Below, piece after piece: positions 21,418 through 38,533 of a stretch of DNA of 64,000 nt. Source of the stretch: Absidia repens (Eukaryota > Mucoromycota > Mucoromycetes > Mucorales > Cunninghamellaceae). Location: the NCBI GenBank assembly GCA_002105175.1, contig MCGE01000001.1, positions 3,286,001 to 3,350,000 of the forward strand, read 5' to 3'. The stretch's first letter is position 1. Every line of letters begins with the position of its first letter. Position numbers and translations under genes: made by a program. The notes below the pieces were generated by a model. The model was not told the origin of the DNA and did no database searches. It was given only the letters and a program-made list of their open reading frames with translations.

Positions 21418-23477
21418 TACTATTTAATCTAAGCATCCATGAAGAAGTAGTTACCGCTAAGCTTTTGTTCTTGATCCAATTGGGAATCCAATTTGTTGAT
21501 ACGAGGACGATAGTTGGAAGGATCACGACGGAAGGTGATTTCAAGCGAAGCCAAGAATTTGTTCATACCAGTCAAAAGAGATTGGGGTGAGTTGGCAACA
21601 GCATGAACGGAAGGAGTACCATCATACACAACCACACGATCAGCCAAATACGTAGCCATAATGAAATCGTGCTCGACAACAAACGCAGTACGCTTAAAGT
21701 GCACAATGAATCGCTTGATCACCTTGGCTGCAATAATACGTTGTTCGGAATCCAAATACGCAGAAGGTTCATCAATCAAATAGATATCAGCAGGTTGACC
21801 CAATGCAAGCACAATGGCCACACGTTGCAATTCACCACCAGACAAGTGAGTCACTTCTTGATCAATAATGTTATCAATGTTGAGGGGTTTCATGACATCA
21901 GTGTTGAATTGAGGGTTCAAGAACGCAGCCTTGATCTTCTTGATGAAAAGCATACGCACAGTACCCTTGAATTTGGGAGAGATCTTTTGAGGTTTGTAGG
22001 ACACATTGAGTTCAGGAATTTGGTTTTCGCCGTCAGGTTTCAACAAACCAGCCAACAATCGAATAAATGTCGTCTTCCCGGTACCGTTTTGACCCAACAT
22101 CACCACAATTTCAGAATCAGTAAATTCACCAGCCTTCACATCCAATCTAAAGTCACCCATAGTCTTGGTCATTGCAGGATATTTGTAGTTGCGATGTTTA
22201 GCCACCGATTCTTCTTCAGCCACTTCACCGATCTTGAAAGTCAAAGATTCTTCACGGAAACGCAAGTTTTCAGTACGAATGTTACCATCCAAGAAAATGT
22301 TGATACCTATTCCAATAATAATAATAAAGAAAGAGAGAGAGAGAGAGGGAGGGAGGGAGGGAGGGTAGGGTTAGCGATCATTATAACAAATAACTGCTTG
22401 CTTTTGATTCAAAAACTTACCATCCCGGACAGATGCAGGAAGAGTAACAACACCATAAGCAGAAGGCATACCATACAAAATACAAATATAATCAGAGAGG
22501 TAATCCAAGACAGACAAATCGTGTTCCACAACAATGATATAACTAGATAATATAATGCGAATGAGTTTACCATCCTCCAAGAACTATAAAATGTATATAT
22601 TTGATTGAATATTTATACTTACGTATCAGAAGCAATCAAAGATCGAATAATACGAGCAGCATTCAAACGTTGCTTGACATCAAGATAAGAAGAAGGTTCA
22701 TCAAACATATAAACATTGGCCTTTTGAACAGCCACCACACCAATAGCGAAACGTTGCAATTCACCACCTGAGAGTTGTCCCACTTCACGTTGTAAGACGT
22801 CGCGAAGATCTATTCAAAATCATGATGATTATAGTACTGTTAGCCATGTGCCCTATCCCTTCTTCTTATGTAGACACACACACACACACACATGCACGTT
22901 TTTGTTCCTTCTTACCTAAAGAGTCAACAGTATAATCAAAGTTATCACGTTCCAACTTGTCTTCCAGAAGAGCACCCACACGTCCGTTGACCACCTTTGG
23001 AATATGATCCACATATTGAGGTTTAATGATTGCCTAGTAAAAATCGAGAAATAGAAACGAATCAATTGACTTGAATATTTTATACCCACACATTGCCACC
23101 CTTCCCCTTACCTTCAAGTTGTCTTCCAGAATCTTGGTGAAATAGTTTTGCAGTTCAGAGCCACGGAAGTACTTTAACAAATCTTCCCAATCAGGAGGGT
23201 TATCAAAGTTACCCAAATTGGGCTTCATTTTGCCGGACAAGATTTTCAAGGCGGTGGATTTACCAATACCGTTTGTTCCGACCAAACCAAGGACTTGCCC
23301 AGGACGAGGCACTGGGAGACGATGCAGCTTGAAAGAATTAGCAGAGTAACGATGGGTGACTTCGGATTCAAGGTTGGTGGGCAAATTGATAATATGAATG
23401 GCACCGAAAGGACATTTCTTGGCACAGATACCACAACCGATACACAAGGATTCAGAAATATAGGAGATCTTGCTTGT
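21418..23477 (-). repeat. Inverted duplication arm 1 (identical 2,060-bp RLI1 core)
   Basis: This stretch is the reverse complement of 36474-38533. By direct reading I found no mismatch, including introns, a (GT)n run and a (GGGA)n/(GA)n run. Position p here equals 59951 minus the position in the other arm, with no length change. Just outside, five differences occur in 26 bases of the same exon at one end, and similarity stops after the stop-codon region at the other. The spacer between arms is about 13 kb. Confidence 0.93.
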
Positions 23478-23779
23478 TCCTTCCACTTCGATACAGAACT
23501 TACCTATAAGAAGAGAGTTGTCCCATAAGAGAAAAACGCCATCAATAACAAAATACTTAAATATACCCTCCTTGGCATGATTTCATGGACTTACCCATAC
23601 GGTTGACAGGACAGGATCGCTTACTACAATATATGTAAAAGGTTCATTAGTATTTCTTCCAGTATAAAGCCCAGCAGTATTTTTGACAGTATATCTTTCT
23701 CTTACCATTCCTGGCGACACTTTTTAGGTTTACACTTGTCAGCACTGACGATGGCAATACGAGTAAGTTTATCACTCAT
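21429..23779 (-). CDS. RLI1: ABCE1 / RLI1 ribosome-recycling ATPase, copy 1
   Basis: Soluble ABC-type Fe-S ATPase that splits ribosomes after termination and joins initiation and ribosome export. Seven exons, 599 residues: 23779-23706, 23623-23595, 23503-23112, 23033-22916, 22809-22623, 22542-22421, 22306-21429. N-terminal Fe-S domain: [35 protein letters not shown], then [19 protein letters not shown]1 has Walker [10 protein letters not shown], signature LSGGELQR and Walker [15 protein letters not shown]2 has [17 protein letters not shown] and [13 protein letters not shown]-loops (VVEHD) follow both. It begins MSDK where copy 2 begins MSEK, and has its own promoter and first two introns, but from exon 3 to the stop its DNA is identical to copy 2. 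Confidence 0.96.
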
Positions 23780-24293
23780 GATTGGATGATATAAATAAGA
23801 GGGAGGGGAGAGGAGGGGGAAGGTAAAGAATACAAGTAAAGAAAGTTACAAAAAAGGGCGGGTCAAAGCGAACAAAATAAAAAAAAAAAAAAAAAAAAAA
23901 GTGACTTCACAAAAAGAAAAAAGCGGGGAACAAAAATATTTGCGCTTTGCCGTAGTTCTTGTCGCAGCACCAAAAGGATCATATGGTACTGTATTCCTGA
24001 TCATCACCAATAATCAATTTGTAATCAGAGAAAAGCAATTGATTTTATCTACATAGGAGACACATAGGATAGAAGACAAAAAGACAAATACATAAGAAAA
24101 GTTTTATTTTACAAAATAATAATAATAGTAGTAGTAGTAATAAAAAAGGAGAGAGGTAGTATAAATAAAGAGGAAATAAAGAGGATTGTAGGTAAATGGT
24201 AATAGTGAAAAATAAAGACAGAAGAGTAGGAGGTAATAATAATAGTAATAATAATAATATTCTAATTACACTATATTATACTATACTACGGTA
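23780..24293. other. RLI1 copy 1 promoter and Bsd2 3' flank
   Basis: The promoter at about 23780-23950, read on the minus strand, contains CCGCTTTTTTCTTTT, GTCACTTTTTTT and TTTGACC in the same order as the promoter of RLI1 copy 2 at about 35985-36090. The duplication therefore included upstream DNA. The remainder is AT-rich with AATAATAGT-type repeats near 24115-24140 and 24235-24260. Confidence 0.55.
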
Positions 24294-36179: not shown

Positions 36180-38522
36180 ATGAGTGAAAAACTTACTCGT
36201 ATTGCCATTGTCAGTGCTGACAAGTGTAAACCAAAAAAGTGCCGTCAAGAATGGTAAAAAAAAATAAAAAAAAAATAAAAGATACGCAATCCTCTTTGAG
36301 AAGATACACTGAAAGAAGTACTGAATTTATGTTATATTTCATAGCAAACGATCTTGCCCTGTCAACCGTATGGGTAAGTGCCGCATTTGAATTACAACTC
36401 TATCGATAATTGTATTAATCTTTGTTTTACCGTTACTCTTCTTATAGGTAAATTCTGTATTGAAGTAGAACCAACAAGCAAGATCTCCTATATTTCTGAA
36501 TCCTTGTGTATCGGTTGTGGTATCTGTGCCAAGAAATGTCCTTTCGGTGCCATTCATATTATCAATTTGCCCACCAACCTTGAATCCGAAGTCACCCATC
36601 GTTACTCTGCTAATTCTTTCAAGCTGCATCGTCTCCCAGTGCCTCGTCCTGGGCAAGTCCTTGGTTTGGTCGGAACAAACGGTATTGGTAAATCCACCGC
36701 CTTGAAAATCTTGTCCGGCAAAATGAAGCCCAATTTGGGTAACTTTGATAACCCTCCTGATTGGGAAGATTTGTTAAAGTACTTCCGTGGCTCTGAACTG
36801 CAAAACTATTTCACCAAGATTCTGGAAGACAACTTGAAGGTAAGGGGAAGGGTGGCAATGTGTGGGTATAAAATATTCAAGTCAATTGATTCGTTTCTAT
36901 TTCTCGATTTTTACTAGGCAATCATTAAACCTCAATATGTGGATCATATTCCAAAGGTGGTCAACGGACGTGTGGGTGCTCTTCTGGAAGACAAGTTGGA
37001 ACGTGATAACTTTGATTATACTGTTGACTCTTTAGGTAAGAAGGAACAAAAACGTGCATGTGTGTGTGTGTGTGTGTCTACATAAGAAGAAGGGATAGGG
37101 CACATGGCTAACAGTACTATAATCATCATGATTTTGAATAGATCTTCGCGACGTCTTACAACGTGAAGTGGGACAACTCTCAGGTGGTGAATTGCAACGT
37201 TTCGCTATTGGTGTGGTGGCTGTTCAAAAGGCCAATGTTTATATGTTTGATGAACCTTCTTCTTATCTTGATGTCAAGCAACGTTTGAATGCTGCTCGTA
37301 TTATTCGATCTTTGATTGCTTCTGATACGTAAGTATAAATATTCAATCAAATATATACATTTTATAGTTCTTGGAGGATGGTAAACTCATTCGCATTATA
37401 TTATCTAGTTATATCATTGTTGTGGAACACGATTTGTCTGTCTTGGATTACCTCTCTGATTATATTTGTATTTTGTATGGTATGCCTTCTGCTTATGGTG
37501 TTGTTACTCTTCCTGCATCTGTCCGGGATGGTAAGTTTTTGAATCAAAAGCAAGCAGTTATTTGTTATAATGATCGCTAACCCTACCCTCCCTCCCTCCC
37601 TCCCTCTCTCTCTCTCTCTTTCTTTATTATTATTATTGGAATAGGTATCAACATTTTCTTGGATGGTAACATTCGTACTGAAAACTTGCGTTTCCGTGAA
37701 GAATCTTTGACTTTCAAGATCGGTGAAGTGGCTGAAGAAGAATCGGTGGCTAAACATCGCAACTACAAATATCCTGCAATGACCAAGACTATGGGTGACT
37801 TTAGATTGGATGTGAAGGCTGGTGAATTTACTGATTCTGAAATTGTGGTGATGTTGGGTCAAAACGGTACCGGGAAGACGACATTTATTCGATTGTTGGC
37901 TGGTTTGTTGAAACCTGACGGCGAAAACCAAATTCCTGAACTCAATGTGTCCTACAAACCTCAAAAGATCTCTCCCAAATTCAAGGGTACTGTGCGTATG
38001 CTTTTCATCAAGAAGATCAAGGCTGCGTTCTTGAACCCTCAATTCAACACTGATGTCATGAAACCCCTCAACATTGATAACATTATTGATCAAGAAGTGA
38101 CTCACTTGTCTGGTGGTGAATTGCAACGTGTGGCCATTGTGCTTGCATTGGGTCAACCTGCTGATATCTATTTGATTGATGAACCTTCTGCGTATTTGGA
38201 TTCCGAACAACGTATTATTGCAGCCAAGGTGATCAAGCGATTCATTGTGCACTTTAAGCGTACTGCGTTTGTTGTCGAGCACGATTTCATTATGGCTACG
38301 TATTTGGCTGATCGTGTGGTTGTGTATGATGGTACTCCTTCCGTTCATGCTGTTGCCAACTCACCCCAATCTCTTTTGACTGGTATGAACAAATTCTTGG
38401 CTTCGCTTGAAATCACCTTCCGTCGTGATCCTTCCAACTATCGTCCTCGTATCAACAAATTGGATTCCCAATTGGATCAAGAACAAAAGCTTAGCGGTAA
38501 CTACTTCTTCATGGATGCTTAG
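36180..38522 (+). CDS. RLI1: ABCE1 / RLI1 ribosome-recycling ATPase, copy 2
   Basis: Second ABCE1 gene, opposite in orientation to copy 1. Seven exons (36180-36253, 36345-36373, 36448-36839, 36918-37035, 37142-37328, 37409-37530, 37645-38522), 1,800 bases, 599 residues. Starts [20 protein letters not shown]. All Fe-S cysteines, both Walker A motifs, both LSGGELQR signatures, both Walker B motifs and H-loops are intact, so it should be functional. Against copy 1 the only protein differences I found are Asp/Glu at residue 3 and a Gly/Pro-type change beside residue 42 (VEGT versus VEPT). Intron 1 and intron 2 differ in sequence between copies, whereas introns 3-6 are identical. Intron 1 starts with GTAAAA, a weaker donor than in copy 1. 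Confidence 0.96.
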
Positions 38523-38533
38523 ATTAAATAGTA
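36474..38533 (+). repeat. Inverted duplication arm 2 (identical 2,060-bp RLI1 core)
   Basis: Reverse complement of 21418-23477. It runs from within exon 3 (ACAAGCAAGATCTCC) through introns 3-6 to 11 bases past the stop codon. Length is the same to the base in both arms although it contains two microsatellites. Confidence 0.93.

What the first reader, a model, noticed from the sequence alone, without database searches (positions are those of the whole stretch)
21418..38533. Two RLI1 paralogs share an inverted 2,060-bp core without a visible difference
21418-23477 and 36474-38533 are reverse complements, equal in length to the base, and I saw no mismatch in exons, introns 3-6 or two microsatellites (GT run and GA/GGGA run). 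Immediately outside, five of 26 bases of the same exon differ, introns 1 and 2 differ, and the 3' flanks are unrelated. Old paralogs with an identical middle point to a very recent gene-conversion tract between inverted copies 13 kb apart. Loss of differences even in hypervariable repeats puts the event close to the present or shows it recurs.
Basis: partly seen in the sequence, partly recalled or inferred. Interest (0 to 1): 0.85.

Follow-up and report, generated by a model that had tools for sequence, protein, structure and literature searches.

The report
Recent gene conversion between RLI1 copies
A mould that seems related to Absidia carries two old, opposite-facing copies of the ribosome-recycling gene RLI1 about 13 kb apart, and most of one has recently been overwritten with the other's sequence, a known kind of event that in principle also lets the DNA between the copies flip over.

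Summary
The arms are reverse complements without a mismatch over 2,061 bp, one base more than reported. Each runs from codon 43 of a complete 599-aa RLI1/ABCE1 gene to 11 nt past its stop codon. Outside, the copies are old paralogs: 12 of 25.7 synonymous sites differ in codons 1-43 (Ks 0.73, 95% range 0.33-1.71), and introns 1-2 and both flanks align no better than shuffled controls. Inside, 0 of 374 synonymous sites and 0 of 378 intron bases differ. No other RLI1 locus was found in the 47.4-Mb genome. The adjacent SAHH gene's paralog is 88% identical, and the longest exact run among six EF-1alpha-like loci is 557 bp, so this assembly keeps similar paralogs apart. Recent ectopic gene conversion between inverted copies is the best reading. 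Assembly artefact cannot be excluded without reads. Close precedents exist, chiefly the Saccharomyces flip/flop region (PMC9731477), so this is a clean new example of a known process.

The parts
21418..23478 (-). Left arm of the identical block (copy A, third base of codon 43 of RLI1 to 11 nt past the stop)
   Evidence: 0 mismatches to the reverse complement of 36473-38533
36473..38533 (+). Right arm of the identical block (copy B)
21429..23779 (-). RLI1/ABCE1 copy A, 7 exons (23706-23779, 23595-23623, 23112-23503, 22916-23033, 22623-22809, 22421-22542, 21429-22306), 599 aa, residues D3 and G43
   Evidence: spliced model; 7,995 proteins at E <= 0.001, the 120 listed including named RLI1/ABCE1; ABC_tran domain in its last exon
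36180..38522 (+). RLI1/ABCE1 copy B, 7 exons (36180-36253, 36345-36373, 36448-36839, 36918-37035, 37142-37328, 37409-37530, 37645-38522), 599 aa, residues E3 and P43
   Evidence: spliced model
23479..23779 (-). Unconverted 5' part of copy A: exons 1-2, start of exon 3, introns 1-2
   Evidence: 15 of 15 CDS differences lie in the first 128 of 1,800 nt; introns at shuffled-control identity
36180..36472 (+). Unconverted 5' part of copy B
   Evidence: its only other genome matches lie in copy A, 75% and 91%
23479..36472 (.). 12,994-bp spacer between the arms, holding both unconverted 5' gene parts; the segment that a crossover between the arms would invert. Includes a NEDD4/Bsd2-domain frame, a PQ-loop frame, amino-acid permease frames and dispersed-repeat copies
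   Evidence: Pfam hits; repeats. Inversion itself is inferred, not observed
23912..23926 (-). Shared promoter word CCGCTTTTTTCTTTT upstream of copy A (132 bp between it and the ATG)
   Evidence: 2 exact matches in the window, one per RLI1 promoter, and a third with 1 mismatch at 15708; expected 0.03 at up to 1 mismatch; 7 in the genome against 4 for the reversed control; distances
35993..36007 (+). Same word upstream of copy B (172 bp between it and the ATG)

Best explanation
An RLI1 gene was duplicated long ago into two complete head-to-head copies 13 kb apart. Their promoters, introns 1-2, untranslated flanks and silent sites then drifted apart. Recently a break in one copy was repaired from the other (ectopic, non-allelic gene conversion between inverted repeats). 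One copy's exon 3 to the end of detectable 3' homology was thereby replaced by the other's, introns and microsatellites included. The tract ends inside exon 3 on one side and where homology ends on the other. Shown: the geometry, the old 5' divergence, the identity, the copy number found, and that similar paralogs elsewhere in the assembly are not collapsed. Inferred: the repair mechanism, one event rather than several, and that selection for two equal ribosome-recycling proteins may favour fixation. Donor and recipient are not determined.
For: 0 of 2,061 mismatches. 12 of 25.7 synonymous sites differ in codons 1-43 against 0 of 374 in codons 44-599, and 0 of 378 intron bases differ. All 15 CDS differences lie in the first 128 nt. 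Introns 1-2 and both flanks are at shuffled-control identity. Both copies are complete 599-aa genes. Only two RLI1 loci were found in 47.37 Mb (the one further DNA match is 30 bp at the microsatellite). In-genome controls: SAHH paralog on another contig 88%; two further locus pairs of the same GTPase-domain family at 86% and 80%; six EF-1alpha-like loci with longest exact run 164-557 bp in 15 of 15 pairs. A. cylindrospora's two copies share E3, Q43 and T366, while both copies here have A366, consistent with homogenisation within lineages.
Against: No reads, coverage or second assembly were available, so the identity rests on one assembly. No DNA of relatives was available, so there is no direct sight of paralog-specific cores before the event. 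The A. cylindrospora comparison rests on a few residues, and both its copies have the B-like residue E3, which could also mean an independent duplication there. The Ks of 0.73 rests on only 25.7 synonymous sites.
Confidence: 0.84

Rival explanations
1. Assembly or polishing artefact: the assembler, or multi-mapped polishing reads, wrote one core consensus into both loci.
For: No reads are held; identity is perfect even in two microsatellites.
Against: The contig is 3.9 Mb in a 79-contig assembly. Six EF-1alpha-like loci are kept distinct: best alignments 95.7-97.7% over about 1.1 kb in 8 of 15 pairs and 90.7-94.5% over 1.5-1.9 kb in 7 of 15, with no exact run above 557 bp. The SAHH paralog is kept at 88%. 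These controls lie on different contigs, so they do not test two copies 13 kb apart. If the cores had been as diverged as exons 1-3 (81-92% identity), merging them into one consensus would be unusual. The artefact would have to stop mid-exon.
Confidence: 0.08
2. Recurrent concerted evolution (a stronger form of the best explanation, not exclusive of it): the cores are homogenised again and again, and this is only the latest event, with occasional crossovers inverting the 13-kb spacer.
For: A. cylindrospora also has two RLI1 proteins, both listed with a longest contig of 11,053,066 bases, that differ at 2 of 384 compared residues and share T366 and Q43 against both copies here. Precedent: the Saccharomyces flip/flop region (PMC9731477; abstract, introduction, section 10 and discussion read).
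Against: Few informative residues; no DNA, orientation or spacing known in A. cylindrospora; independent duplication there is possible. One event suffices for the window.
Confidence: 0.3
3. Recent partial inverted duplication: a 3' RLI1 segment was copied onto a pre-existing 5' fragment, not a repair of a complete paralog.
For: The block ends where detectable 3' homology ends.
Against: It requires a diverged 5' fragment joined in frame at the exact homologous base. Templated copying of this kind is nearly indistinguishable from conversion, so this is a sub-case.
Confidence: 0.05
4. Recent duplication of the whole gene followed by fast 5' divergence.
For: None found.
Against: 12 of 25.7 silent sites and two whole introns would have had to change beside 0 of 752 silent-plus-intron sites.
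Confidence: 0.01

Closest known systems
Saccharomyces chromosome XIV flip/flop region (YNL018C/YNL034W inverted repeats; Salzberg et al. 2022, PMC9731477)
   Same: Two gene-bearing inverted repeats a few kb long, 24 kb apart, homogenised within species by gene conversion, intergenic parts included.
   Different: There both orientations and repeated homogenisation are shown in many strains and species, the repeats are 4.2 kb and two protein genes long, and S288C arms are 97.6% identical. Here one assembly, one gene, a 13-kb spacer, 100% identity, and part of the same gene left unconverted.
Human inverted-repeat inversions such as FLNA/EMD, HsInv0389 (Aguado et al. 2014, PMC3961182, passages read)
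   Same: Inverted repeats whose recombination flips the spacer between them.
   Different: In that study both orientations are genotyped; here no inversion has been observed.
Interlocus conversion of duplicated yeast histone genes, likened there to ribosomal-protein genes (Scienski et al. 2015, PMC4700949, abstract read)
   Same: Paralogs encoding parts of tight complexes kept alike by conversion, proposed to be fixed by selection for equal copies.
   Different: Those are genome-duplication paralogs seen through gene trees; here a single visible tract between nearby inverted copies.
ABCE1/ABCE2 paralogs of Brassicaceae (PMC9618717, passages read)
   Same: A case of two ABCE genes where most genomes have one.
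   Different: The Brassicaceae copies diverged in rate and expression; here the proteins differ at 2 of 599 residues.

Membership tests
Recent ectopic gene-conversion tract | Block of near-identity with sharp edges inside otherwise diverged homologous genes | tested here: met
Recent ectopic gene-conversion tract | Identity includes introns and silent sites, not only constrained sites | tested here: met
   0 of 378 intron bases, 0 of 374 synonymous sites
Recent ectopic gene-conversion tract | Tract absent or different in outgroup strains or orthologs | not testable with these tools
   No DNA of fungal relatives was available; one search states the genome has no relatives here
Recent ectopic gene-conversion tract | Supported by reads independent of the assembly | not testable with these tools
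   no reads held
Flip/flop inverted-repeat system | Homogenised inverted repeats flanking a unique spacer | tested here: met
   the spacer's listed genome matches are two dispersed-repeat stretches and short pieces (39 of 3,941 candidates scored)
Flip/flop inverted-repeat system | Both spacer orientations found in nature | not testable with these tools
   one assembly only
Concerted evolution | Paralogs within a species more alike than orthologs between species | tested here: inconclusive
   Of 384 compared residues: window pair 2 differences, A. cylindrospora pair 2, between species 3-4
RLI1/ABCE1 | Two N-terminal 4Fe-4S cysteine motifs followed by twin ABC ATPase domains (definition recalled) | tested here: inconclusive
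   599-aa translation with cysteine-rich stretches in view; the closest listed proteins carry PF04068, PF12837, PF00037 and PF00005. Of the window's RLI1 proteins only the last-exon frame was scanned, which holds one ABC_tran domain

The most novel reading that the evidence does not exclude
The head-to-head RLI1 pair is a long-lived flip/flop module of Absidia-like fungi. Its cores are homogenised again and again in each species, and occasional crossovers invert the 13-kb spacer. Each inversion would trade the two diverged promoters and 5' introns between the two 3' untranslated regions of a usually single-copy essential gene without breaking either reading frame.
Probability: 0.2. Interest if true: 0.55.

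Novelty: new member of a known kind. Interest (0 to 1): 0.33.

Why it matters
It is a clean natural gene-conversion tract with an upper bound on its age, at a gene that is single copy in most genomes, in a fungal group where such events seem little described (one search for 'gene conversion' with 'Mucorales' listed 12 papers, none of which appeared from its title or abstract start to treat such a pair). If recurrent, it would be another fungal flip/flop locus beside the Saccharomyces one and would allow tests of why equal copies of a translation factor are kept, and of how promoter and terminator pairing affects expression. It also warns that gene trees built on the core would misdate this duplication.

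Tried and rejected
Looked for a third RLI1 copy or donor elsewhere: none by DNA (whose one further match is 30 bp at the GT microsatellite on C78) or by protein (last-exon frame as query; the two weak extra hits are other parts of the same two genes).

Looked for comparable local duplicates in the 264 kb from C1:3086001 to the window's end: of 68 listed pairs of at least 88% identity and 150 bp, the RLI1 pair was the only inverted one; the rest were direct, most of them one tandem array.

Searched for relatives' DNA: the genome has no relatives held, and 'plasmids' gave no match to the B-specific 5' part, as expected. Collections of viral or prokaryote contigs were not scanned. Protein searches (120 listed of 7,995, 3,144 and 1,002) gave A. 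cylindrospora's second copy but no second A. glauca copy in the listed rows.

Residue 43 as a marker of copy type was dropped: it is P, G, Q, S, T or A among the 15 listed relatives compared, so G43 shared with A. glauca is weak evidence that the duplication predates the species.

Considered and rejected: retrocopy (introns are present in both), protein-level selection alone (introns identical), transposon origin of the arms (no extra copies), tRNA-bounded repeats as in yeast (0 tRNAs found in the window).

Searched papers. That the RLI1 case itself is not in print rests only on these; none named it in the listings.
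Full report
WHAT IS THERE. Each arm is most of an RLI1/ABCE1 gene: 87% of copy A's span and 93% of the coding sequence. Copy A runs on the minus strand (23779 to 21429) and copy B on the plus strand (36180 to 38522), head to head. Each has seven exons and codes for 599 aa. Their proteins differ at two residues, D3E and G43P. The coding sequences differ at 15 sites, all in the first 128 of 1,800 nt. The shared block starts at the third base of codon 43 in exon 3, includes introns 3-6 and two microsatellites (GT9; CCCT5 followed by CT7), and stops 11 nt past the stop codon.

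OUTSIDE THE BLOCK. Introns 1 (53 of 78 aligned bases) and 2 (48 of 69), 400 bp upstream (228 of 341) and 400 bp downstream (234 of 346) do no better than the best of 20 shuffled controls. A local alignment over exon 1, intron 1 and exon 2 reaches 75%, so some trace of common descent may remain there. The one shared promoter trait noted is the word CCGCTTTTTTCTTTT, found exactly twice in the window, once before each RLI1 start. It occurs 7 times in the genome, against 4 for the reversed control, so its function is open.

HOW UNLIKELY. In codons 1-43, 12 of 25.7 synonymous sites differ (Nei-Gojobori with Jukes-Cantor, Ks 0.73; 95% range 0.33-1.71). In codons 44-599, 0 of 374 differ, and 0 of 378 intron bases differ. 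At the 5' rate about 175 synonymous differences were expected in the core. The chance of none is about 10^-51 even at the lower bound. Constraint on the protein cannot explain identical introns in the same genes as introns at shuffled-control identity. The upper 95% bound on neutral divergence of the cores is 0.4%, about 0.5% of the point estimate for the paralogs (1.2% of its lower bound). The event is therefore recent relative to the duplication; absolute time is not given, because no mutation rate for this fungus was used.

THE GENOME AS CONTROL. The genome (47,368,516 bases, 79 contigs, unnamed) yielded two RLI1 loci by DNA and protein search; the only other DNA match is 30 bp at the GT microsatellite. 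The contig is 3.9 Mb. The SAHH gene next to copy A has a paralog on another contig at 88%. Six loci that carry the GTP_EFTU_D3 domain and look like EF-1alpha (name inferred) are kept distinct. In 8 of 15 pairs the best alignment is 95.7-97.7% over about 1.1 kb, in 7 of 15 it is 90.7-94.5% over 1.5-1.9 kb, and the longest exact shared runs are 164-557 bp in 15 of 15 pairs. Two further locus pairs of the same domain family are 86% and 80% alike. So the assembly does not routinely collapse similar genes, though these controls lie on different contigs, and an exact 2-kb match is exceptional among the paralogs examined. In the 264 kb upstream of and including the window, the RLI1 pair is the only inverted pair with at least 88% identity over at least 150 bp. 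No reads were available, so artefact stays open at about 8%.

RELATIVES. The nearest named protein is from Absidia cylindrospora (P0001, 594 of 599 residues shared with copy A, 595 with copy B). The same species has a second copy (P0121, a 395-aa model whose last 11 residues depart from the family, perhaps by a frameshift), listed with the same longest-contig length, 11,053,066. Over 384 compared residues its two copies differ at 2 (27 and 96), the window's two at 2 (3 and 43), and between species there are 3-4 differences. Residue 366 is T in both A. cylindrospora copies and A in both window copies. This fits homogenisation within lineages but is thin: both A. cylindrospora copies carry the B-like E3, so a separate duplication there is possible, and residue 43 varies freely (P, G, Q, S, T, A in 15 relatives). 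That the window's fungus is an Absidia relative is inferred from these proteins, not given.

MECHANISM. Best reading: a recent non-allelic gene conversion between inverted paralogs. The tract is limited on the 3' side by the end of detectable homology and on the 5' side by the edge in exon 3. Donor is unknown. Shown: geometry, divergence contrast, copy number found. Inferred: repair of a break from the other copy, and possible selection for equal copies. A crossover in the arms would invert the 13-kb spacer and join each promoter half to the other 3' UTR with both frames intact. This follows from the geometry and is not observed.

WHAT IS KNOWN. The closest precedent is the Saccharomyces flip/flop region, where 4.2-kb inverted repeats 24 kb apart are homogenised by conversion and the spacer flips repeatedly (PMC9731477: abstract, introduction, section 10 and discussion read). 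That paper also weighed assembly artefact and found independent long-read assemblies of seven strains in agreement. Human inverted-repeat inversions, FLNA/EMD among them, behave alike (PMC3961182, passages). Conversion between duplicated yeast histone genes, likened to ribosomal-protein genes, has been explained by selection for equal subunits (PMC4700949, abstract). ABCE is single copy in most genomes (PMC9618717, passages). The window is therefore a clear new case of a known kind, at an unusual gene.

VERDICT. Observation confirmed, interpretation supported, novelty modest.

Noticed in passing
28212-28855 (+) and about 34265-34847 (-), also 8197-8580, 10009-10680, 61990-62634: Old dispersed repeat family: 3,328 first-look candidates in the genome, of which 40 were scored and 39 are 73-77% alike to the window copy; two copies in opposite orientation lie inside the spacer.
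   Followed up: partly
17719-19242 (-): S-adenosylhomocysteine hydrolase gene next to copy A, with an 88% identical paralog on contig C10.
   Followed up: partly
23912-23926 (-) and 35993-36007 (+): The 15-base word CCGCTTTTTTCTTTT stands before both RLI1 starts in otherwise diverged promoters.
   Followed up: partly
4660-6432 (-) and 11667-13497 (-): Two apparently related kelch-repeat genes on the minus strand; weak Pfam kelch matches for the one frame scanned of each.
   Followed up: no
48934-49125: Glutamine-rich repeat tract inside a 1,210-aa reading frame.
   Followed up: no
63495-63783: Short tandem array with a period of about 67-68 bp, self-alignments 88-95% alike.
   Followed up: no
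G000 C1:3254060-3254762 (L024): Tandem array with a 6-bp period over about 700 bp in the upstream stretch.
   Followed up: no
P0001, P0121 (A. cylindrospora), P0002 (Cunninghamella echinulata): Arg-to-Cys or Arg-to-Gln changes at conserved sites (R27Q, R96C; similar in P0002) and an odd end in P0121 could be sequencing errors at CpG sites; this is a guess.
   Followed up: no
L032-L035, L038, L039: Six EF-1alpha-like loci on different contigs, some pairs 95.7-97.7% alike over about 1.1 kb, perhaps partly homogenised themselves; the longest exact run is 557 bp between L035 and L039.
   Followed up: partly
P0035, P0047 (Rhizopus arrhizus): Two RLI1 models with the same locus-tag prefix that differ at 2 of the first 535 residues (43 and 211), possibly another near-identical pair.
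   Followed up: partly
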